Below are positions 3,084 through 64,000 of a stretch of DNA of 64,000 nucleotides, piece after piece. The notes beneath the pieces were generated by a model. That model saw only the letters and a list, made by a program, of their open reading frames with translations, made no database searches and was not told where the DNA came from. Position 1 is the first letter of the stretch. Each line of letters begins with the position of its first letter. The stretch is from Bartonella bovis 91-4 (GTDB lineage Bacteria; Pseudomonadota; Alphaproteobacteria; Rhizobiales; Rhizobiaceae), in NCBI RefSeq assembly GCF_000384965.1, contig NZ_CM001844.1:170046-234045 (forward strand). Reading direction: 5' to 3'. The position numbers and the translations under genes are program-made.

Positions 3084-4700
3084 TTAAGGTTGTCTTGTAA
3101 AGCCAAAACTAATACGGCACAATAGCATAAGCATGAATAAGATAAAAGTAGAGAATATTCTATATTCATTGTTCCATATTGGAATAATTGGTGACGGAAT
3201 CGGGGAATCAAGAAAGCCAATAACATTTTGTTCAAGAATATCAACGATTCGTCCATAAGGATCAATCACGGCTGATATTCCATTGTTTGCTGCTCGTATA
3301 AGGGGTATTCCCAGTTCGACTGCACGCAATCGTGCTTGCTGAAAATGTTGGTATGGGCCAGGCGTTATGCCAAACCATGCATCATTTGTAACATTAATAA
3401 TTGCTTGAGGTGGAGGACCTTTAAAAGTCATTTCATGCGGAAATATGGCTTCATAGCAAATGAGTGGAAGATAAGAAAATCCATTTGGCATCATAACAGT
3501 TTGGCGCACAGAAGCAGAGCTATATCCACCAATTTTATCAGCAATGGTATTTAATCCAATTTTATTCAATAAATTTGGATAAGGGAAATATTCACCAAAA
3601 GGGACCAGATGAAGTTTATCGGAAGCATTAAAAATATTGCCTTTGGCGTCAATGACTTCAATTGTATTAAAATATTGTGTTTGGGCATTGGAAAAATCAG
3701 TACTGGCTCGCACAGCACCAATAATGGCCCATTGTTGTGGCTTAAGAAATGAGGCGATGCGCATTATGATATCAGAGGTATCTGTGAGAATGTAAGGAAC
3801 AGATGTTTCGGGCCATACGATAAAGTCAGGCTTTAAAGCTTGATCAGTTTCTGACACTATACTTAAGTTTAAATGAGCTGTGAATATATCTTCAGGTGTA
3901 GCATTGTCCAATTTTTTGTTTTGTTGAATGGAAGGTTGAACAATACGTACCCAATAGCTACTTTTTTGATAATCAGCAATATTAGGTGCTGTATTTAGTC
4001 GATAAAATCCAAAGACGCTATGAGCTAATATAAGCAGAAAACAAAGAACAAGTGCAGGTTTCTTTTTTTCATTCGTGAATATAACTGTAGGTAAACTATA
4101 GGCTAAAACAGCAAGAATATTCATTCCGTAAAGCCCTACAATTATATCTGATTGCATGAGCATTGGGGTTGGCATAGCTGTATAACCAAGAGCATTCCAT
4201 GGAAATCCTGTAAACAAGATAGCGCGCAACCATTCTGCTAGTCCCAGTGCAAAAGCAAGGACAAAGAAACGTGTTATTCCTTTTGTCCATAACCAACCAA
4301 CAATAAAACCAGCAAAAACCCAATAAAGGGCAAGATAAGCGGGAAGGCCAAAAATAACAAATGGTATTCCCCAAGCATAAGAGATCGGATCTATCAATAA
4401 AGCATTGCTTGTCCACCAAAGGCTACAAACAAAATAACCAAAGCCAAAATTTCCGCAGGTTAGTGCACTTATCAAAAGGCGTTTTTTGAGATTTTGAGTA
4501 ACGTTGATTGCATCAAGTAAGATAACGAAGATAGGAAAAGTTAAAAAACTGACAGGTGTCAGATAAAAAGGTGGGAGGGCAAAGGATGTGAGTGCACCAC
4601 ATAAAAAAACACATACTTGTTGTTTCCAACCAGTGATAGAATGTAGGAAAGCTGTGATAAAAAGCACTGAACCATCATCCTTTTGAAGTAGCCTCTTCAT
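3084..4700 (-). CDS. lnt: Apolipoprotein N-acyltransferase
   Basis: Lnt adds the third acyl chain to the N-terminal cysteine of lipoproteins in the inner membrane. The 538-residue protein has a hydrophobic N-terminal half with six or more membrane segments (about 25-235) and a C-terminal nitrilase-like domain (about 250-510). The expected catalytic triad is present: Glu298 in WPETSVPY, Lys362 in SDKLHLVPFGEYFP, and Cys415 in LICYEAIFP. These correspond to E267, K335 and C387 of the E. coli enzyme. The start overlaps the 3' end of the upstream CorC-like gene by 26 bases, so they are probably co-translated. Three lipoprotein candidates carrying lipoboxes lie in or near this window, which fits the role. 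Confidence 0.95.
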   Translation of the reverse strand: MKRLLQKDDGSVLFITAFLHSITGWKQQVCVFLCGALTSFALPPFYLTPVSFLTFPIFVILLDAINVTQNLKKRLLISALTCGNFGFGYFVCSLWWTSNALLIDPISYAWGIPFVIFGLPAYLALYWVFAGFIVGWLWTKGITRFFVLAFALGLAEWLRAILFTGFPWNALGYTAMPTPMLMQSDIIVGLYGMNILAVLAYSLPTVIFTNEKKKPALVLCFLLILAHSVFGFYRLNTAPNIADYQKSSYWVRIVQPSIQQNKKLDNATPEDIFTAHLNLSIVSETDQALKPDFIVWPETSVPYILTDTSDIIMRIASFLKPQQWAIIGAVRASTDFSNAQTQYFNTIEVIDAKGNIFNASDKLHLVPFGEYFPYPNLLNKIGLNTIADKIGGYSSASVRQTVMMPNGFSYLPLICYEAIFPHEMTFKGPPPQAIINVTNDAWFGITPGPYQHFQQARLRAVELGIPLIRAANNGISAVIDPYGRIVDILEQNVIGFLDSPIPSPIIPIWNNEYRIFSTFILFMLMLLCRISFGFTRQP

Positions 4701-5803: not shown

Positions 5804-6280
5804 TTAAAGCAACTCAGTATAGGGATTTTTTATGGAAAGCTTTTGAAGGATTTCTCTTTCTAGTTTTTCCATTTGATTAGCCTCATCATTTGTTTCATGG
5901 TTATAACCAAGAAGATGAAGAAGGCCATGAACAATCATATGCGTTAGGTGGTCTTGAAATGATTTCCCTTCTTCTTTTGCTTCTCGCGTAATAGTTTCTC
6001 TCGCAATGATGATATCACCGAACATAAGTTTAGGACTTTGTCCAACTTTAAGAGGAAAAGCAGGAAAGGATAAAACATTGGTGGGTTTGTTTTGAGAGCG
6101 CCATTGCGCATTGATTTGCGCTATATGATCGTCATTTGTAAAAAGCAAGCTGAGTTCACTTGTTACTTTGTTTAATGACAAATGATGCATTGTGGTGGTT
6201 AATGCTTTTGTGGTGATATTATAAAGTACGTCCTCATTACCCCATTCAGCGTCTTCAATGGTGATATCAATAGTAATCAT
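5804..6280 (-). CDS. ybeY: Endoribonuclease YbeY
   Basis: YbeY is a zinc-dependent endoribonuclease needed for 16S rRNA 3'-end maturation and 70S ribosome quality control. The 158-residue protein carries the metal-binding signature [11 protein letters not shown] (about residues 117-127) in the form HxxxHxxxxxH, preceded by the conserved [10 protein letters not shown] block. The start codon overlaps the phoH stop by four bases, which is the usual phoH-ybeY coupling. Confidence 0.95.
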
Positions 6281-16966: not shown

Positions 16967-17104
16967 TTTGTGCCAGAAGTTTCAACTTTACAAGCATGTG
17001 TAGTTAGTTTTATTTGTGATTTGGATTTTATCAATTTATCAGAAGAGTTGTGATCAATGTATTGTTTAAATTGATGTGATGTGACTTGATCAAAAGGTAA
17101 AAAA

Positions 17105-18229
17105 ATGGTGGCCTATATTTTGTGGCGTCTCTTGTTAATTATACCGACACTGATTGGTATTTTAACGGTGACATTTGTCATTGTACAATTTACGCCTGGT
17201 GGACCTATTGAAAATATTATTGCTCAATTACAAGGAATGGGTGGTGATGCTGTAGGACGGGTGGCTGGTGGTAGTAGTGATCTTGGTCTTTCTTCTGATA
17301 GTGTTTTTAACGATGCGCATGCTGGCTTATCTTCTCATGGGAGTTCTAAATACCGTGGAGCACAAGGGTTGGATCCAGAATTTATAGCCAAACTTGAACG
17401 GCAATTTGGTTTTGATAAGCCACCTTTGGAACGTTACTTGACGATGCTTGGTAATTATGTGCGTTTTGATTTTGGGGAGTCTTATATACAAGGGCGTTCA
17501 GTTATTGAGTTGATTAAGGATGCTCTACCTGTTTCTCTTTCTTTTGGTTTTTGGAATTTGCTAATTTCTTATGCTATTTCCATACCATTAGGAATCCGTA
17601 AAGCTCTTAAAGAAGGGTCTGCTTTTGATGTATGGACAAGCGCTATTATTGTTATTGGCTATGCAATTCCTAATTTTCTCTTTGGAATTTTTTTAATGGT
17701 TTTTTTTGCTGGAGGGTCTTTTTTTGACTGGTTTCCATTAGGTCATTTGACTTCTGATAATTTTGATAAATTATCCTTTGGAGGCAAGATATTAGATTAT
17801 CTGTACCATTTGATTTTGCCATTGACAGCGATGGTCATTTCTTCTTTTGCTACAACAACCTTGTTGACGAAAAATTGTTTTCTGGAAGAAATTCGCCAGC
17901 AATACGTCATTACAGCTCGTGCGAAGGGTTTAAGTGAACACTCGATTCTTTATGGTCATATTTTTCGCAATGCGATATTGATTGTAATTGCTAGTTTTCC
18001 TGTAGCTTTTATGGGGTCATTTTTTAGCGGATCTTTATTGATTGAAATGCTATATTCATTAAATGGCATGGGGCTTTTAAGTTATACGTCTATTGTCAAT
18101 CGTGATTACGCTGTTGTATTTGCCTGTCTTTATATTTTTTCGCTAATTGGTCTTGTTGTGAGTCTCATTTCTGATATCGTTTATATGTTCGTTGATCCAC
18201 GTATTGATTTTGGTAAAAAAGATTTATGA
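17105..18229 (+). CDS. yejB: Peptide ABC transporter permease YejB
   Basis: This is the inner-membrane permease of the YejABEF oligopeptide importer. The 374-residue protein begins LWRLLLIIPTLIGILTVTFVIVQF (first membrane span). It contains the YejB-type FTPGGPIENII segment, a periplasmic Gly/Ser-rich stretch, and a BPD-transport inner-membrane domain (about 130-365). The ABC-coupling motif reads EEIRQQYVITARAKGLSEHSILYGHIFRNA. The four-base ATGA overlap with yejE shows coupling. The usual substrate-binding gene yejA is not next to it; the 138 bases upstream of the start hold no gene. Confidence 0.93.
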   Translation: MVAYILWRLLLIIPTLIGILTVTFVIVQFTPGGPIENIIAQLQGMGGDAVGRVAGGSSDLGLSSDSVFNDAHAGLSSHGSSKYRGAQGLDPEFIAKLERQFGFDKPPLERYLTMLGNYVRFDFGESYIQGRSVIELIKDALPVSLSFGFWNLLISYAISIPLGIRKALKEGSAFDVWTSAIIVIGYAIPNFLFGIFLMVFFAGGSFFDWFPLGHLTSDNFDKLSFGGKILDYLYHLILPLTAMVISSFATTTLLTKNCFLEEIRQQYVITARAKGLSEHSILYGHIFRNAILIVIASFPVAFMGSFFSGSLLIEMLYSLNGMGLLSYTSIVNRDYAVVFACLYIFSLIGLVVSLISDIVYMFVDPRIDFGKKDL

Positions 18230-35001: not shown

Positions 35002-35820
35002 ATGATAAGATGCCTTATTATTATATGTGCTCTTACTGTGGCTTCAATTTCTATTGTGCGTGCGTCAGGTTATATGGTTATTCAAGAGCCAATACCAGTT
35101 TTTTTTCCTTCTACTTTTTCTTGGGAAGGTTTGTATTTGGGGGGGCAAATTGGTGGGGGGGTGGGCAGACTTTCTGTAAATCCTCGTATTATTTCTGGTA
35201 AAAGTACTGTTAGTAAAAAATCTCAAACAGTTTCTAGTGATAAGTATAATCTTGCAGGTTTTATTGGGGGTTTTTATATAGGTTCCAACCTTAGGCTCGA
35301 CAATGGCCTTATCTTAAGTGTTGATACAGACATTGTTTTGTCTAATCAAAAGAATGTACAATTTGGTAAGCGGATGACTGTTAGTGATCAATCAGCCCTT
35401 GTACATAATGCGCTCGTTAGTCGTTTTGGGCACAAAAAATCTGGTTCGATTAAAGTGGGTAATGAGGTAACTTATAATACCACTCGTAAAGAAAAATGGG
35501 CTGGTGCTACACGGATTCGTATTGGTTTTGCTACTGGTCACATTATGCCTTATATTGCCGGTGGCATTGCTTATACGAATCTTCAAATTATTCCTTGGTT
35601 TTTAGTCAATTCAGCTAATCCTTTAAATTTAATGGCAGAAAAAAAGACGCTAATTGGTTACACTCTTGGTGCGGGGGTTAATTTTGCAATAAGTGATAAT
35701 GTTATTCTTCGTGGAGAATATCGTTATTCAGATTTTGGTAAAAAGAAATTTATGGAGGTTCCGGTAAACGTTAGTTATAGCACTCATGACTTGCGTGTAG
35801 GTGTGGCATATAAATTGTAA
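35002..35820 (+). CDS. Hemin-binding protein-like outer-membrane porin (Omp25/31 family)
   Basis: This is a 272-residue outer-membrane beta-barrel of the Omp25/Omp31 family. In Bartonella these are the Hbp hemin-binding proteins. It has a signal peptide (about 1-22, ending VRAS), then FSWEGLYLGGQIGGGVGRL (the conserved first strand). Next come FIGGFYIGSNLRLDNGLILSVDTDIVLS, WAGATRIRIGFATGHIMPYIAGGIAYT and the C-terminal EYRYSDFGKKKF. It ends VGVAYKL, where the usual last residue for barrel assembly is Phe. Three paralogues lie in this window. Hemin binding is inferred from family membership. A GGAG site precedes the ATG. Confidence 0.85.
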   Translation: MIRCLIIICALTVASISIVRASGYMVIQEPIPVFFPSTFSWEGLYLGGQIGGGVGRLSVNPRIISGKSTVSKKSQTVSSDKYNLAGFIGGFYIGSNLRLDNGLILSVDTDIVLSNQKNVQFGKRMTVSDQSALVHNALVSRFGHKKSGSIKVGNEVTYNTTRKEKWAGATRIRIGFATGHIMPYIAGGIAYTNLQIIPWFLVNSANPLNLMAEKKTLIGYTLGAGVNFAISDNVILRGEYRYSDFGKKKFMEVPVNVSYSTHDLRVGVAYKL

Positions 35821-35966: not shown

Positions 35967-36839
35967 ATGAATATGAAATGTGTAGTAACAGCGTCTATTT
36001 TCGCTTTAGTTTCAGCTTCTGCAGCTCAAGCAGCAGATATGCCAATTCAGGAAAGACCAACAACAGTATTGCCACAAGTTGTTGTTGCCCCAGCTTTTTC
36101 TTGGACAGGTTTTTACCTTGGTGGACAAATCGGTGGCTTTTCAAGTAAGAGCAACTCGAAAGGAACTTATGAAAAAGCACCAAATGAGCTTCTTGAAAAC
36201 AATAAAGCGTTTCCTAAGTTTTCAGGTTTTGTAGGGGGCCTTTACGCAGGTTCTAACGTTGATTTCGACAATGGCTTTGTTTTGGGTGTTGACACAGACA
36301 TCGTTTGGTCTGGAGAAAAAGCTAAAGCATCAAAAACGTATACTTTGGCTCAGGACGGCACTGATGATAAAAAAAGATTGGTAGCGCGGGCAGATGGTGA
36401 AGATGGTGGTACTGGTGGTGAAGGTGGTACTGGTGGTGAAGGTGATAAGCCAAACACTCCACCAGTTCCTTCTGATGTAACTAGAAATGTGACTTTTAAC
36501 AGTAAATGGTCTGGTGCTACACGGGTTCGTCTTGGTTTTGCTTTTGATCGTATTATGCCTTATGTTGCTGGTGGTATTGCTTATTCGCAGATTAAAGCTT
36601 CAGTTGCACAAAGAGAAGGAGGAAGCGTAGTAGAAAAACCTCTTGAAGACTGGTCAAATTCAAAAACATTTGTTGGATACACTCTTGGTGCCGGTGTTGA
36701 CTTTGCAATGACTGAAAGCGTTATGTTACGTGCAGAGTACCGTTACTCAGACTTTGGTAAAAAGTCATTTGTCAATGACAACATTGAAGTTGATTTTAAG
36801 ACCAATGATTTCCGCGTTGGTGTAGCATACAAATTCTAA
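35967..36839 (+). CDS. Hemin-binding protein-like outer-membrane porin with Gly-rich loop
   Basis: This 290-residue member of the Omp25/31 (Hbp) family lies 146 bases after its paralogue. Its signal peptide ends SAAQA-AD. The mature start leads into FSWTGFYLGGQIGGFSS, then FVGGLYAGSNVDFDNGFVLGVDTDIVWS, WSGATRVRLGFAFDRIMPYVAGGIAYS, AEYRYSDFGKKSF and a terminal VGVAYKF. Between two strands it carries a Gly-rich insert with a tandem GGTGGE repeat, probably a surface loop. Codon use is less AT-skewed than in its neighbours, which suggests strong expression. An intrinsic terminator follows. Confidence 0.88.
   Translation: MNMKCVVTASIFALVSASAAQAADMPIQERPTTVLPQVVVAPAFSWTGFYLGGQIGGFSSKSNSKGTYEKAPNELLENNKAFPKFSGFVGGLYAGSNVDFDNGFVLGVDTDIVWSGEKAKASKTYTLAQDGTDDKKRLVARADGEDGGTGGEGGTGGEGDKPNTPPVPSDVTRNVTFNSKWSGATRVRLGFAFDRIMPYVAGGIAYSQIKASVAQREGGSVVEKPLEDWSNSKTFVGYTLGAGVDFAMTESVMLRAEYRYSDFGKKSFVNDNIEVDFKTNDFRVGVAYKF
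36405..36440 (+). repeat. Two 18-bp tandem repeats in a porin loop
   Basis: GGTGGTACTGGTGGTGAA occurs twice in perfect tandem (36405-36422 and 36423-36440). It encodes GGTGGE twice inside the predicted surface loop of the Hbp-type porin, preceded by GEDG. Changes in copy number would keep the reading frame and alter loop length. Confidence 0.9.
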
Positions 36840-56307: not shown

Positions 56308-56313
56308 ATGTAT

Positions 56314-57177
56314 ATGAAATATCTAATGACAGTGTCTGTTTTTGTTTTGCTCGCACCTTCTGTGGTACAAGCAGAAAATAGTACAATTCCTCAAGAATCA
56401 ATGTCTGTTGTGCCATCAGTTATTGTTGTTCCTGCTTTTTCTTGGACAGGTTTTTATTTTGGTGGTCAGTTTGGTGTTTTTTCGAGCAAGACTGATCTAA
56501 GTTCAAATTATTTAGAGAATGGTAATATTGAAAAATGGGCTTTGATTAGAAAAGATTTTATGCCTAAACTTTCGGGGGTTGTTGGAGGTTTTTATGCAGG
56601 TTTTAATGTTGATCTCAGCAACGGTTTTATTTTAGGTGTTGATACGGATATAGTTTTGTCTGGTAAAAAGGACATAAAGACTATTAATATAGACAATTAT
56701 GGTGCAAATGAAGAGTTAAAAAATGAAAGTATAATAAAAGATTGTGAAGGGATGGTTGCTACTTTTGGTTGTAGTATTGTTAAGGATTATAATGAGAATG
56801 CTGTTTCAGGAATTAAATTTGCGACTTATAATCATACTTTAAAACAGAAATGGGTTGGTGCTACGCGGGTACGTATTGGTTTTGGTGGTCGTGTTATGCC
56901 TTATATCGCTGGTGGTATTTCTTATACACAGCTTCAAGGTGTCTTATTGAGGTTGAGCGAAGAACAAGGTCAAATAGTGAATGACACGGTGAGAGAAACA
57001 AGGACAATGATTGGTTATATTTTGGGTGCTGGTGTTGACTTTGCAATGATTGATAATATTATTTTGCGCACAGAATACCGTTATTCAGATTTTGGTAAAA
57101 AGAAATTTGCAAAAGGTGGAGTTGAACGTAATTACGAAGCTAATAATTTTCGCGTTGGTGTAGCTTATAAATTCTAA
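56314..57177 (+). CDS. Hemin-binding protein-like outer-membrane porin
   Basis: This third Omp25/31 (Hbp) family member has 287 residues from MKYLMTVSV. The ATG at 56314 is chosen because it lies nine bases after AGGAGG and gives the family N-terminus; an ATG six bases upstream is also in frame. Features are a signal peptide ending VVQA, FSWTGFYFGGQFGVFSS, VVGGFYAGFNVDLSNGFILGVDTDIVLS and WVGATRVRIGFGGRVMPYIAGGISYT. It ends EYRYSDFGKKKF ... VGVAYKF. The central variable loops (about 120-175) differ from both other paralogues and carry three cysteines. An intrinsic terminator follows; phage remnants begin after it. Confidence 0.87.
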   Translation: MKYLMTVSVFVLLAPSVVQAENSTIPQESMSVVPSVIVVPAFSWTGFYFGGQFGVFSSKTDLSSNYLENGNIEKWALIRKDFMPKLSGVVGGFYAGFNVDLSNGFILGVDTDIVLSGKKDIKTINIDNYGANEELKNESIIKDCEGMVATFGCSIVKDYNENAVSGIKFATYNHTLKQKWVGATRVRIGFGGRVMPYIAGGISYTQLQGVLLRLSEEQGQIVNDTVRETRTMIGYILGAGVDFAMIDNIILRTEYRYSDFGKKKFAKGGVERNYEANNFRVGVAYKF

Positions 57178-58460: not shown

Positions 58461-59393
58461 GTTAAGAGTCTTGGCTCAAAATAGTGTTTTTCTGTTTCAT
58501 CAAAGGCAGTTTCTTATGTAAAGCGAATGATATCTAGAGGTTGTGAGAATGATTTAGCAATAGCGGATCCAGCTCACACACTTTTGCTTTTTAATGTTAA
58601 AATAAAGCACAGTTTATTTGTAATATGGGATTTTCTGTTAAGAGTACTATAAGATATAAACATATTGTAAGATATTATAAGATGCCTTTTTTAAAGAAAT
58701 TGCATGTTGTGTAAAGTAATTTATACCATTTGCAGTATTGGTTAAGTTTATGCTTTTAGTTATTGCTTGATGGAGAGCATAGTATTGTAGCTAGTATTTT
58801 TTGGGTATACCAATAATAAAGAAGTGGCAAATAGTGTTAAAGTAGTTTTAATTGCAATAGACGTTGTTAAAGAGTGCGTTATGCTTATTGCTAAGTTTGT
58901 ATGGTACCAATTTATCAACGAAATTTATAGTTTATATTTATAGAAGAAGCATCAAAGAAGCTCAAACACATCAAGGCTTAGTATAACGTATTATGGTTTG
59001 ATAACCTAAAAAAATGCATTTACTGTGATCGCACAATCCATGGAATTTACAAGAAATTTCAGTAGATATTATATCACCACTTGGAGGTGTTTGTTTTTTA
59101 TATATTTTAGATTTTGTATATTTTAGCGTATTTATTAGTTTTAGAGATTTTTTTTTGTTTATGGGTTTAGGTCATGGTTTAATGTCTAGGCGCTTTGTTT
59201 GATGTTTTGATTTTATGTGTGTTTTGTTTGTTGTTTGAAGATGTGTGTTTTAGCTTTGTGGGTGTTGAGAGTGTTTTATATTAGGGTATGGTGTTTTTAG
59301 GTAAGGGTTAGAGTTGGGAGGATTTTATGGGGTTTAAGCCATTTTAGTATGGTTTAGTTTTAGTTTTCTTTTTTTTAGAATAGTTTAGTCTCT
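58461..59393. other. Intergenic stretch upstream of the autotransporter, no gene seen
   Basis: This is 933 bases. The first part is AT-rich with no recognised gene. From about 59090 the plus strand becomes T/G-rich with repeated TTTAG, TTTTAG and TTTTG words and few C residues, leading into the G-rich autotransporter gene. It presumably holds the autotransporter promoter. Confidence 0.5.
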
Positions 59394-59412
59394 TTTAACC
59401 TGACAGGTTAAA
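59394..59412. promoter_or_regulatory. Perfect 19-base inverted repeat at the autotransporter ribosome binding site
   Basis: TTTAACCTG and CAGGTTAAA flank a single A at 59403. The right arm touches the GGGG ribosome binding site at 59413-59416, which lies three bases before the ATG at 59420. It is placed to act either as an operator or, in RNA, as a hairpin that controls access to the start. Confidence 0.6.
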
Positions 59413-59419
59413 GGGGAAC

Positions 59420-62400
59420 ATGTGGGTTATGGTTATGCGTTGTGTTTTTAAGCATCATGTTTATTTATGTGTTGTCTCAACCGCTCTTATGGCTGGGCTT
59501 TCCCTTATAACGTCTCATACTTCAAAGGCGTATGCTCAAGCACATAATTGTGGGAGTGGTGGTGGTGTTGGTACTGTTAAAAATGATAATAAGCCGATTG
59601 TGTGTGATAGTAGCAGTGGGACAAAGACGCTGAATAGTAGTGGTGGTGGTGAGATAAAGATAAATATGGATAAGGACCCTGGTAAGTCTGCTGTGACGGT
59701 AACGGGGTCGGGGACGAATATTACGATAATAAAGAAGATAACGGTTACGGGGTCGGGGGGGAAGGGGAGTGATCAAAAGCCGGTGATTAAGGTGCTTAAT
59801 AAAGGACAGCTGACGTTGGATGAGGATGTTGATGTTAAGGGGGTGACGGGGGGGATGCAGAAGGTGATAGCGGTTGAGGGTCAAGGGTCTTCTGTTACGT
59901 TGAAGGGGAAGTTGACGGGGTTTGAGAGGGTACAGGTGAAGAATGGGGGGATGGTTGTTTTTGAGAAGGGGGTGAAGGGGATTGAGGGGATGAAGGTGAA
60001 AATTAATGATGGGGGGATGGTAAATATGATGGGGGATGTGGCTTTTAATAGTGTTGGTGGAGCGGGGATACAAATTACGGGGGATGGGGCGGGGAAGGCT
60101 ACTGTGATGGGAGTGGGGAGGACGATGACTGTTAATGGAAGTGGGAGTGGGATACAGATGGAGGGGTCGGGAAATGCTGATGTGATGAGGTTGAAGATTA
60201 AGGGGAGTGGGGGGACGGGGGTGAGTATGCAGGGGACGGGGGTGATGGAGTTGACTAAGGTAGAGGTGTCGGGGTTCAAAAAGGGGGTGGATATGACAGC
60301 GGGGAAGTTGGTGATGATGGGGGAACGGTGACGTTTGAGAGTGAGAGGGGGAATTGGGGGGTGAGGGTGGGGAGTGGGGTGGAGAGTGCTAGTTTGACGG
60401 ATGTAAGGATTATGGGGACGAGTGGAAATAGGGAGGGTAAGGGGGTGATTATGGGTGGGACGAAGATGACGATGACTAATGTGGATATTTCAAAGGTTAA
60501 GGTGGGGGTAGAGGTGCAGGCTGGGACGTTGAATATGATGGGGGGGACGGTTACGTTTGAGGGTGGGAACGGGAATTGGGGGGTGAAGGTTGAGAATGGG
60601 GCGACGGCTAATTTGATGGGTGTGGCGATTATGGGGACGAGTGGGGGTAAGGGGGTGTGGATGGAGGGGACGGGTGGGACGATGACGATGAATATGGTGA
60701 ATATTTCAGAGGTGCAGACGGGGATACAGGTGACAAGTGGGAATCTGACGGTAAGTGGGGGGGAGATGACAGGGGTGCAGACGGGGATAACTATGTCAGG
60801 AAGTGGGACGTTGATGGTGAACAATAATGCGAAGATTACGTTTAAGGGAGATCACGGGGTGAAGGTGGGTGAATCGGTGAAGAGTGCTAGTTTGATGGGT
60901 GTGACGATTATGGGGACGAGTGGGGGGAAGGGGGTGTTGATGAATGGGAGGGAGATGACGATAAGTGGGGGGTCAATTTCAAATGTAGCAATGGGGGTGG
61001 AGGCGACAGCGGGGAATTTGACGATAAAGGGGCACTCGACGATTACGTTTACGAGTGGGGCCGGGAATTATGGGGTGAGGGTGGGGAGTGGGGCGAGTGC
61101 TGATTTGACGGATGTGACGATTAAGGGGGGTGGGGCGACGGGTAAGGGGGTGTGGATGGAGGGGAAGATGTTGAAGATGACCAATGGGGAGATTTCAAAT
61201 GTTGATAAGGGGGTGTATGTGGGGGGTGCGGTGACAAATGCTAGTTTGACAAATGTGAATATTTCAGGGGTTAAGGTGGGGGTGGAAGCAACTAATGGGA
61301 CGTTGACGGTGAATGAGGGGACGAGGATTACGTTTACGGGAAGTGGGCAGGGGGTGAAGGTTGAGAGTGGGGTGACAAGTGCTAGTTTGACGGATGTAAG
61401 GATTGTGGGGGGTGGGAGTGGAAAGGGAACGGGGGTGATAAAGGAGGGTGAGGGGGGGATGACTTTGACTAGTGTGGGGATTTCAAATGTTGCAATGGGG
61501 GTGGAGGCAACGGCGGGGAGGTTGGAGATAAAGGGGGGATCGATTGAGTTTACGAATAGTGGGATGGAGAATTATGGGGTGAAGGTGGGGAGTGCGGTGA
61601 CAAGTGCTACTTTGACGAGTGTGACGATTGAGGGGGGTGGGAGTGGACATGGGAACGGGGGTGGTTATGGGGGGGACGGGGGAGATGACGATGGAGAGGG
61701 TGACGATTTCAAATGTAGCAATGGGGGTAGAGGCAACAGCGGGGACGTTGGTGATAAAGGATGGGACGAGGATTGAGTTTACGAATAGTGGGATGGAGAA
61801 TTATGGGGTGAAGGTGAAGAATGGGGTGACAAGTGCTACTTTGACAAATGTGGCGATTAAGGGAATGAATGGAAATGGGACGGGGGTATATGTGGAGGGT
61901 GGCACGGGGACGTTGATGATGGATAATGTGACGATTAAGGATGTTAGTGAGGGGGTATGGGTGAAAGGGGGTGGGACGTTGACGATGACCAAGGGGGAGA
62001 TTGGGTTTATGGGAGAGGAAGGGGGGTATGGGGTGATGGTGGGGAAATTGGTGGAGAGTGCTACTTTGACGAGTGTGACGATTAGGGGGACAGATGGACA
62101 GGGGATGGGGGTGGTTATGGGGGGGAAGATGTTGGAGATGGAGAGGGGATCGATTTCAAATGTTGAGTTGGGGGTATATGCGATGGGGGCGAAAGCGGTG
62201 ACGTTGGATGGGGTGGATATTTCAGAGGTCGCAATGGGGGTATTGATGAAAGGGACGGGGACGTTGACGGTGAAGAATGGGGAGATTACGTTTAAGGGTG
62301 GAGAGAAGAATTATGGGATAGGGGTGTGGGGAACAGCGACGGCTAATATTACGGGAACGAGGGTTACAGGAGAGGGGAGTGGAAAGGGGAAGGTGGGGGT

Positions 62401-64000
62401 GATAAAGGAGGGGCGGGGAGATGACGATGACCAATGTGAATATTTCAAATGTTAAAATGGGGGTGTGGATGAAGAATGGGAATCTGACGGTGAATGGGGG
62501 GACGATTTCAGAAGTGCAGACGGGGATAACTATGACGGGAGGTGGGAGGTTGATGGTGAATGAGGGGACGAGGATTACGTTTACGAGTGGGGGGACAAGG
62601 AATTATGGGATAGGGGTGGGGGGTGAGGTGACGGCTAATATTACGGGGGCGGAGATTACAGGGAGTGGGAGTGGAAAGGGGACGGGGGTGTATGCAACGG
62701 GGGCGAAAGCGGTGACGATGGAGGAGGTGCGGATTTCAAATGTTAGTGAGGGGGTGGAGGCGAAGGGGGGGATACTAGCGATGAAAGGAGGGTCAATTGG
62801 GTTTATGGGAGAGTATGGTATCAGTCTTAACCAGGGTGGTGGCGTTTTAAAAGATGTCAGAATGATTTATACGGGTAGCAGTCCTACAGCTGACTTCATT
62901 AAGGTTGTGGATGGGACAGTTATCGCTGAGGGTATCAAAATCGATGGAAATGGTTATGGGCAGGGGATGAGTGTAACACAAAAAGGCCATGTCGTGTTGA
63001 TTAAGCCAAATTATATCAATGTTGATAAAGGCATGACTGTTTCAGAAGGTATTGTCCGTATGTTTGGAGGGGAAATTGGGTTTACAGGAGATTATGGGGT
63101 TTATCTCAAGAAAGGTGGGGCTGCTTTAATAGCGGTCACTATCAAGGGAAATAGAACAGGAAAAACAGGTATCAAGCTTAATGAGGGAAGGATCGATCTC
63201 TACAAGACAAATATAAGAGATGTTCATAAGGGGATGACGATTACAGAAGGTATTGTTCGTATGGAGGGAGGATCGATGGAGTTTAAAGGAGATTACGGGG
63301 TTTATCTCACAAAGAGCATTGCTGCTTTAAAGAATGTTAGAATTACGGGACCTAGTAATAAGGGTACGGGGGTGTATGTGCAGAGTGGGGTGGGAGCGGT
63401 GATGATGAAGGAGGTGCGGATTTCAGAGGTTGAGAAGGGGGTAGAGGTGATAAGTGGGAATCTGATGATGCACAAGGGGTCGGTGGCTTTTAATGGAGGT
63501 CACGGTGTCAGTCTCATAGGGGGAAATGCTGCTTTAAAGGATGTTAACATTACAGGTCAAGATCATGAGACAGAGGTGGCGGTAAAGGCGCTCATGGGAA
63601 CAGTGGCGATAAAAGGGGGGGAGATGTCAAATGTTGGGACGGGGGTAGAGGCGACTAATGGAGGTGCGGTGTGGTTGGTTGATACAAGTTTAAGGGATGT
63701 CTATAAGGGGGTGAGTGTCGAAGATGGGGTTGTTCATATGGAGGGAGGAGAGATTGGGTTTATGGGAGAGCGTGGTGTCAGTCTCACAAGGGGGCAGGCT
63801 TTGTTAGATGATGTCAGTATTACAGGACCTGGTGATGAAGGTACGGGGTGTATGCAACGGGGACGGGAGCGGTGATGATGAAGGAGGTGGATATTTCAAA
63901 GGTTGATAAGGGGGTAGAGGTGATAAGTGGGAAGCTGATAATGCACAAGGGGATCGGTGGCTTTTAATGGAGGTTACGGTGTCAGTCTTATAGGAGGAGA
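59420..64000 (+). pseudogene. Giant autotransporter passenger gene, frameshifted, 3' end outside window
   Basis: The ATG follows a GGGG site. The precursor begins with an extended signal peptide of the Bartonella autotransporter type (MRCVFKHHVYLCVVSTALMA, then GLSLITSHTSKAYA-QA). The passenger is a right-handed beta-helix made of short repeats such as MTMTNVNISNVKMGV, ITFKGDHGVKVG and VTISNVAMGVEATAG. The frame breaks at about 60319-60323, 61648-61654, 62408-62420, 63845-63848 and 63953, each a single-base change relative to sibling repeats and mostly at short G runs. Correcting these five gives an open frame to the window end. The coding strand is extremely G-rich, except at 62.8-63.36 kb. 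No beta-barrel domain is in the window, so it must lie further right if present. Confidence 0.8.
60976..61816 (+). repeat. Dispersed repeat units in the autotransporter passenger
   Basis: A 39-base unit encoding ISNVAMGVEATAG occurs at 60976-61014, 61480-61518 and 61706-61744, with only a few differences. A 45-base unit encoding IEFTNSGMENYGVKV occurs at 61543-61587 and 61772-61816. They alternate with similar GVTSATLT units. The spacing matches beta-helix coils, not CRISPR. Confidence 0.85.

What the first reader, a model, noticed from the sequence alone, without database searches (positions are those of the whole stretch)
59420..64000. Giant autotransporter interrupted by at least five single-base frameshifts, mostly at short G runs
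Sibling repeats show the intended reading frame at each break. At 60319-60323 the run has one G fewer than the sibling at 60538. At 61648-61654 there is one extra base. At 62408-62420 a G-rich stretch is altered. At 63845-63848 there is one G fewer than the sibling at 63361. At 63953 there is an inserted A. Correcting these five leaves no other stop over about 4.6 kb. True decay would usually add nonsense codons, so the pattern suggests recent loss, slippage-driven phase variation, or homopolymer calling errors. Other genes in the window are intact, but none is this rich in G runs.
Basis: partly seen in the sequence, partly recalled or inferred. Interest (0 to 1): 0.75.

Follow-up and report, generated by a model that had tools for sequence, protein, structure and literature searches.

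The report
Broken spare-part copies of surface autotransporter
The broken gene is one of many spare copies that lack the membrane anchor, and a cattle-infecting bacterium seems to use such copies to keep changing the outer part of its one anchored surface protein, which could help it stay hidden from the immune system.

Summary
The frame breaks are real in the deposited sequence: codon-model labelling finds five frame changes between 59420 and 64000 with no in-frame stop. But the gene is not shown to be an autotransporter: no barrel was found nearby, and the window ends at a 100-N scaffold gap. It is one of 17 pbhR-family copies in a 1.62-Mb Bartonella bovis genome. In each of the three genomes that carry the family (3 of 61), one copy has a barrel, at a conserved place; no barrel was found with the other 36. 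The barrel copy's passenger is a patchwork of its own genome's barrel-less copies: exact tracts of 100 nt or more cover 56-89% of it. That similarity stops before stalk and barrel. Breaks rise steeply with G-run length, some recur in several copies, and they are rarer in barrel copies. Best reading: donor copies feed one autotransporter locus by segmental gene conversion, while G-run slippage breaks frames mainly in donors. Switching is not shown, and sequencing error at single sites is not excluded.

The parts
59080..59419 (+). 5' flank shared with the other family copies of this genome (the match to the barrel copy begins 339 nt upstream of the start)
   Evidence: 98.3% identical to the flank and start of the barrel copy; a 481-nt query over flank and start found at all 17 starts, 95-100%
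59420..60331 (+). First open piece, 303 aa: signal peptide and start of the beta-helix passenger
   Evidence: ORF; 80% identical to the N-terminus of the barrel copy at 1222878-1223798; predicted beta structure of the homologous P0002
59730..59836 (+). 107-nt tract identical to the passenger of the barrel copy
   Evidence: exact-match scan, genome 229775
59969..60225 (+). 257-nt tract identical to the passenger of the barrel copy
   Evidence: exact-match scan, genome 230014
60316..60331 (+). First frame change; a matching break is called in three array copies at 1.24-1.28 Mb
60328..61776 (+). Second open piece (482 aa ORF; family frame as far as about 61633)
61628..61660 (+). Second frame change
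61628..62455 (+). Third open piece (275 aa ORF), right-handed beta-helix
   Evidence: PF13229, E 5.8e-16, 59 bits against a cut-off of 25.9; frame
62405..62425 (+). Third frame change
62421..63875 (+). Fourth open piece (484 aa ORF; family frame as far as about 63844)
63840..63850 (+). Fourth frame change
63845..63943 (+). Fifth in-frame stretch
63940..63956 (+). Fifth frame change
   Evidence: not compared with a sibling because of the gap
63944..64000 (+). Last stretch; the next base is the start of a 100-N scaffold gap

Best explanation
The window gene is a barrel-less, donor-like copy of the pbhR family. The ruminant Bartonella lineage keeps one full autotransporter (signal peptide, beta-helix passenger, autochaperone stalk, barrel) at a conserved chromosomal place, plus 8 to 16 copies of signal and passenger alone, most of them in clusters elsewhere. 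Segments of these copies are recombined into the passenger of the barrel copy, so its exposed part changes while stalk and barrel stay (the mosaic is shown; its timing and use are inferred). Short G runs, dense because glycine is mostly GGG, slip and break frames; breaks collect in copies that need not be exported themselves. A break carried into the barrel copy, or arising there, would turn it off until the next exchange (inferred).
For: One barrel per genome lies in a family copy (open frames 2273, 2476 and 1277 aa at 1215542 in G000, 1171529 in G060, 1274552 in G024); the other 5 barrels of each genome have no N-terminal family match beside them. The G000 barrel copy has PF03797 and PF18883. 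In all three genomes 300-nt windows of its passenger match switching own donors at 80-100%; past a fixed point the barrel-less cluster copies no longer match and the other genomes' barrel copies match at 71-83%. Own copies end at nearly one point: G000 4 of 6 at 6165 and 2 at 6123; G060 6 of 10 at 4640, 3 at 4638, 1 at 4589; G024 two at 6035, one at 6066. Exact tracts of 100 nt or more cover 3433 of 6165, 3354 of 4640 and 5388 of 6078 nt. Deposited proteins: L24 against L19 is 95-100% over the last 750 columns, 54% in the next 150, then 75-88%; m02 against 91-4 is 95-96% in the last 300, 69-79% in the next 450, 31-47% beyond. First 170 residues: 58-100% to the own barrel copy, one diverged G024 copy 41%; barrel copies of different genomes 41-55% over 219-226 aligned residues. 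pN/pS 0.41-0.66 in barrel-less copies; breaks rarer in barrel copies, 4 of 87 against 10.1-11.2 expected, p 0.0096-0.0215.
Against: No serial isolates, reads or transcripts were available: switching is not seen. 35 of 36 barrel-less copies keep about 250-445 nt of upstream flank, so 'silent' is not shown. Barrel-less copies also share tracts with each other, so exchange may be general rather than aimed at one locus. In one strain pair, m07a against R1, identity stays at 80-99% over all eight blocks with no drop. In five of eight barrel copies the barrel ORF lacks the signal peptide, so the barrel copy is often off, misassembled or cut short by annotation. The G000 array holds twelve 100-N gaps, so an unseen barrel copy there is possible.
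Confidence: 0.7

Rival explanations
1. Plain concerted evolution: the family homogenises by unequal crossing-over and gene conversion without any switching role, and the barrel-less copies are decaying pseudogenes.
For: Barrel-less copies share long tracts with each other too. Many are short or broken. Copy number differs widely: 17, 13 and 9.
Against: Barrel-less copies show pN/pS 0.41-0.66, and the G060 and G024 copies hold no inner stop. The boundary just before the stalk, with one barrel copy at one conserved place, recurs in three genomes.
Confidence: 0.2
2. Most frame breaks are homopolymer or repeat-assembly errors; the copies are intact in the living strain.
For: 91-4 comes from a study using 454 reads, in which this region precluded genome closure, and it has many 100-N gaps. 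Break rate climbs with G-run length, as calling errors would. Gene-based frame correction was applied to it and would help conserved genes more than these. 78 runs of 6 or more in 20 intact window ORFs are too few to exclude such an error rate, and those ORFs were chosen as intact.
Against: 24 of 84 breaks fall in 10 groups spanning two or more copies. Half of the compared breaks (31 of 62) are not in G runs of 4 or more. G024 and G060 stretches without N show breaks too. Breaks are rarer in barrel copies. Barrel proteins of L19 and L24, from Illumina-polished assemblies, also lack the signal peptide.
Confidence: 0.2
3. The barrel-less copies are functional in their own right, as periplasmic or otherwise exported beta-helix proteins that vary in phase through G runs.
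For: All 17 G000 starts keep signal peptide and 5' flank. Several barrel-less frames are open over 1100-2000 aa. Purifying selection.
Against: No barrel or other export domain was found in the four window pieces searched in Pfam and NCBIfam. Open frames are depleted of runs of 6 or more G against synonymous shuffles, the opposite of a contingency tract, although this partly follows from choosing open frames.
Confidence: 0.12

Closest known systems
pbhR gene family (Guy et al. 2013, PLoS Genet, PMC3610622; section 14 and passages seen)
   Same: Same family and strain (91-4), parallel beta-helix repeats, massive tandem duplication at two sites, ruminant (A-group) lineage
   Different: [quoted passage not shown] here one copy per genome is joined to a barrel, and the others match its passenger piecewise
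[quoted passage not shown]
   Same: Barrel copy lies beside the same 445-aa gene as autotransporters of some other Bartonella; variable passenger on a more constant barrel; reviews call CFA hypervariable, one says the mechanism is unclear (PMC10936683, PMC10288214, passages)
   Different: Orthology to cfa rests on synteny looked at in three genomes and on annotation, not a tree; the other 58 of 61 genomes searched had no match to the family's N-terminal piece at E 0.001
Silent-archive antigenic variation (Borrelia vlsE, Anaplasma msp2/p44, Neisseria pilE/pilS; features from abstracts in search listings and recall)
   Same: One expression locus, many partial copies, mosaic of donor segments, constant end outside the exchanged part
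   Different: Carrier is a classical autotransporter; copies keep start and upstream flank; frame breaks at G runs; switching not observed
Mononucleotide-repeat contingency loci in Bartonella (badE and others, PMC11466379; abstract and section 11 seen)
   Same: Length change in mononucleotide runs breaks frames of a surface protein
   Different: Runs here are mostly 4-8 G, many per gene, and long ones are depleted; their survey used runs of 9 or more

Membership tests
Type Va (classical) autotransporter | C-terminal PF03797 beta-barrel | tested here: not met
   Window copy: no PF03797 hit within 226-246 kb; its 3' end is hidden by a gap. The copy at 1215467-1223798 meets it.
Type Va (classical) autotransporter | Signal peptide and beta-helical passenger | tested here: met
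   PF13229 59 bits in the third piece; the first piece is below cut-off and pieces 2 and 4 have no hit. Homologous P0002 is predicted nearly all beta after an N-terminal helix, mean pLDDT 83. PDB hits include Ag43, pertactin and TibA but none at E 0.001 or better. No signal-peptide predictor was run.
pbhR family | Multi-copy beta-helix genes at two sites of ruminant-lineage genomes | tested here: met
   17, 13 and 9 copies in G000, G060 and G024; 3 of 61 genus genomes; both cluster sites have the same neighbours. G024 has one further diverged copy at a third site.
pbhR family | Autotransporter domain lost (as hypothesised in the 2013 paper) | tested here: not met
   One copy per genome carries the barrel; the window copy fits the statement
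Silent-archive antigenic variation | Single full locus plus several partial copies | tested here: met
   gaps in G000 leave a small doubt
Silent-archive antigenic variation | Expression locus is a mosaic of donor segments within fixed bounds | tested here: met
Silent-archive antigenic variation | Donors lack expression signals | tested here: inconclusive
   35 of 36 barrel-less copies keep about 250-445 nt of 5' flank at 95.8-99.5% identity; no expression data
Silent-archive antigenic variation | Switching during infection, dependent on recombination | not testable with these tools
   needs serial isolates
Mononucleotide contingency locus | Long runs maintained above chance in the coding frame | tested here: not met
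   Runs of 6, 7 and 8 or more depleted against 300 synonymous shuffles in 11 open stretches, z -4.4, -6.8, -6.7; runs of 4 and 5 or more enriched, z 9.1 and 4.5. Open stretches were chosen, which favours depletion.
cfa (CFA) orthologue | Orthology to B. henselae or B. taylorii cfa | tested here: inconclusive
   Stalk and barrel match autotransporters in 48 of 61 genomes; in G009, G050 and G051, the three looked at, a match lies 1.4-5 kb from the conserved 445-aa gene. Primary CFA papers not held.

The most novel reading that the evidence does not exclude
Ruminant Bartonella carry a silent-archive antigenic variation system built on a classical autotransporter: 8-16 barrel-less passenger copies feed one barrel locus by segmental gene conversion, and G-run slippage in donors adds on/off variation. 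This would give a mechanism for hypervariability of a protective antigen class (CFA-like) whose cause is called unclear.
Probability: 0.55. Interest if true: 0.85.

Novelty: new variant of a known kind. Interest (0 to 1): 0.72.

Why it matters
A review (PMC10936683, passages) says the mechanism of variation of the Bartonella protective antigen CFA is unclear and suggests gene transfer between strains. If the arrays are donors for a CFA-like autotransporter, variation can arise inside one cell, and vaccines or serology aimed at the passenger could fail predictably while stalk and barrel stay more constant. It also turns pbhR, described in 2013 as an autotransporter variant that lost its barrel, into the possible archive of a working locus, and makes the idea testable with long reads from serial isolates. 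The frame breaks themselves are the lesser part: they mark copies that need not be exported.

Tried and rejected
Rejected: that the window gene is shown to be an autotransporter (no barrel found). Rejected: that breaks in the window are unique damage (17 copies, breaks family-wide). Rejected: G runs as selected contingency tracts (depleted at 6 or more in open stretches; those stretches were chosen as open). Weak: a homopolymer control from 20 intact window ORFs (78 runs of 6 or more and no break, but ORFs were chosen as intact and conserved genes had been frame-checked). Weak: stop codons just after donor ends; some frame has a stop within 21 nt in all 19 own hits, which is common in AT-rich DNA. 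Weak: structure search, 0 PDB hits at E 0.001 or better. Weak: the nonsense expectation of about 62 comes from aligned stop-free parts, whereas stops were counted over whole copies. Led nowhere: the genome-contig scan with the window piece (0 relatives). Partial proteins of other B. bovis deposits looked in frame by eye, except P0007, whose last residues look like a shifted frame. Dropped before counts: breaks at N; then 3 of 87 breaks with N within 90 nt (84 used) and 22 of 84 without a clean single-indel sibling (62 used). The copy at 1276850 was mislabelled non-coding (1 nt counted) and entered as 5952 open nt. All 8 inner stops of G000 lie within about 270 nt of an N gap (my comparison). 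Of the 12 groups of matching breaks, two (4 breaks) lie within a single copy and are not counted as shared; 'matching' means aligned without net frame change and called within 45 nt, and classes within a group can differ.
Full report
What was checked. The window lies at 170046-234045 of a one-scaffold genome of 1,624,667 bases. Protein names and the 2013 genome paper fit Bartonella bovis 91-4. A codon model trained on 11 open family stretches labels 59420-64000 in six stretches with five frame changes and no in-frame stop; off-frames of the training set hold about 92 stops per 1000 codons. A second labelling that ran across the gap counts one stop 10 bases before it. The frame breaks are therefore real in the deposited sequence. 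The window ends exactly where a 100-N gap begins. No autotransporter barrel was found between 226 and 246 kb, so the title 'giant autotransporter' is not supported for this copy.

The family. The N-terminal region matches 17 starts in this genome: 2 at the window site, 1 at 1.22 Mb and 14 in an array at 1.24-1.30 Mb. Of 61 genus genomes three match this piece: G000, G024 and G060. G060 is Bartonella sp. WD12.1. G024 is probably B. schoenbuchensis R1: its barrel ORF begins like the R1 protein P0043, and the contig lengths differ by 100 bases. Guy et al. 2013 (PMC3610622; [quoted passage not shown] Their assemblies used 454 and Sanger reads, with Illumina reads for homopolymer correction; which data each strain had is in a supplement I could not read.

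One barrel copy per genome. PF03797 finds six barrels in each of the three genomes. In each, one belongs to a family copy, between the same 445-aa gene and a gene of 263-267 aa: 1215467-1223798 in G000 (two ORFs, one break), 1171451-1178851 in G060 (one open frame, 2466 aa) and about 1274.5-1283.4 kb in G024 (three breaks). The G000 end has the barrel and an autochaperone domain. With the other 16, 12 and 8 copies no barrel was found; gaps in G000 leave a small doubt.

Mosaic passenger. Cut into 300-nt windows, the passenger of each barrel copy matches own barrel-less copies at 80-100%, with the best donor changing along the gene. From a fixed point on, the cluster copies no longer match, and barrel copies of the other genomes match at 71-83%. 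Own matches beyond that point, at 67-79%, are by position the neighbouring autotransporter (rows 1241515 in G000 and 1242458 in G060) or, in G024, the diverged barrel-less copy at 963204. Own copies end at nearly the same point. Exact tracts of 100 nt or more cover 3433 of 6165 nt (G000), 3354 of 4640 (G060) and 5388 of 6078 (G024), the longest being 449, 440 and 828 nt. The window copy itself shares 107- and 257-nt identical tracts with the barrel copy a megabase away. At protein level the N-termini of barrel copies are 41-55% identical between genomes, while the first 170 residues of barrel-less copies are 58-100% identical to their own barrel copy, the exception being the diverged G024 copy, 41%. 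Barrel domains are 67-81% identical and the flanking proteins compared 90-92%.

Other strains. One search gave seven deposited barrel-copy proteins at 67-81% identity to the query; with 91-4 that makes eight strains. m02, WD16.2 and WD12.1 (2176, 3448 and 2464 aa) begin with the signal peptide; 91-4, m07a, R1, L19 and L24 do not. Contig lengths equal to the published N50 tie two of the proteins to L19 and L24, assembled from Illumina and Nanopore reads (PMC11320913, section 3 and passages). L19 against L24 is 95-100% identical over the last 750 columns, 54% in the next block and 75-88% after it; m02 against 91-4 is 95-96% over the last 300 columns, 69-79% over the next 450 and 31-47% beyond. 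Among 28 pairs the step is clearest in close pairs; in distant pairs the stalk itself is down to 50-60%, and one close pair, m07a and R1, shows no step (80-99% over all eight blocks).

The breaks. One search counts 44 breaks in 17 G000 copies, 15 in 13 G060 copies and 28 in 9 G024 copies, not counting breaks at N. Inner stops number 8, 0 and 0; all eight lie within about 270 nt of an N gap. Of 84 breaks with no N within 90 nt, 62 could be compared with a sibling differing by one frame-changing indel: 31 in G runs of 4 or more, 5 at one or two G, 19 at other bases or runs, 7 mixed. Per run, the rate rises from 1.9 per 1000 at G4 to 214 per 1000 at G8 (3 of 14 runs; 0 of 3 at G9 or more). Twenty-eight of 84 breaks fall in 12 groups of matching breaks, of which 10 groups with 24 breaks span two or more copies. 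Barrel copies hold 4 of 87 breaks where 11.2 are expected by length (one-sided p 0.0096) or 10.1 by long G runs (p 0.0215). pN/pS is 0.41, 0.62 and 0.66 in barrel-less copies and, on few differences, 0.60, 0.38 and 0.92 in barrel copies; about 62 nonsense changes would be expected in the aligned barrel-less part if neutral (26.3, 23.2 and 13.0), a rough yardstick because that part had been cut to stop-free stretches. Frames are thus kept against nonsense but break by short indels, which suggests that breaks are young or frequent.

Reading. The simplest account is a donor archive feeding one autotransporter locus. The architecture, mosaic and constant end are shown; exchange during infection, its direction and its use against antibody are inferred. 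[quoted passage not shown] The barrel copy may be its counterpart: stalk and barrel match autotransporters in 48 of 61 genomes, and in G009, G050 and G051, the three I looked at, a match lies 1.4-5 kb from the conserved 445-aa gene. Two B. quintana autotransporters are annotated as CFA-like (PMC3595295 passages). The primary CFA papers were not held, so this is a lead. From memory and unverified, an early cfa paper may have noted repeated cfa-like segments.

Prior print. 'pbhR' with Bartonella gave 4 papers, of which by title only the 2013 paper concerns this family. Searches for Bartonella autotransporters with antigenic variation or gene conversion, for autotransporters with silent cassettes or segmental conversion and for B. 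bovis or B. schoenbuchensis with autotransporter listed none that by title or abstract start describes this link. Some lists showed only the best of more papers, and only open-licence papers are held.

Noticed in passing
L016-L017, genome 1215467-1216300 and 1233632-1234488: The neighbouring 864-aa autotransporter shares 96% nucleotide identity over 857 nt of its barrel end with the family's barrel copy, suggesting exchange between barrels as well.
   Followed up: partly
L020:4081-4824 (genome 1291081); G060:C2:73391-74116; G024:C1:239925-240665: A creatininase-family gene lies among copies of the window-type cluster in G060 and G024 but in the 1.29-Mb array in G000, pointing to exchange between the two clusters.
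   Followed up: partly
L015:13416-14573 and 16999-18186 (genome 239461-244231); G024:C1 967 kb and 1342 kb: A phage-type integrase and an N-acetylmuramidase with peptidoglycan-binding domain sit just past the window cluster; the muramidase recurs beside family copies twice in G024.
   Followed up: partly
G024:C1:956720-963213 (L072): A diverged family copy (41% to its own barrel copy) keeps stalk similarity (residues 1-532 of the 832-aa stalk and barrel query) but no barrel, as if a former full copy lost it.
   Followed up: no
window 35002-35820, 35967-36839, 56308-57177: Three outer-membrane beta-barrel genes that look related by eye, one directly before the family cluster; a similar one lies near the 1.22-Mb barrel copy at 1226777. 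Only the one at 56308 was scanned in Pfam.
   Followed up: no
window 59420-64000 and family copies: Extreme G over C on the coding strand (skew up to 0.72, GGG 59% of glycine codons); such runs could form G-quadruplexes, as a paper title suggests for vls switching; not tested.
   Followed up: no
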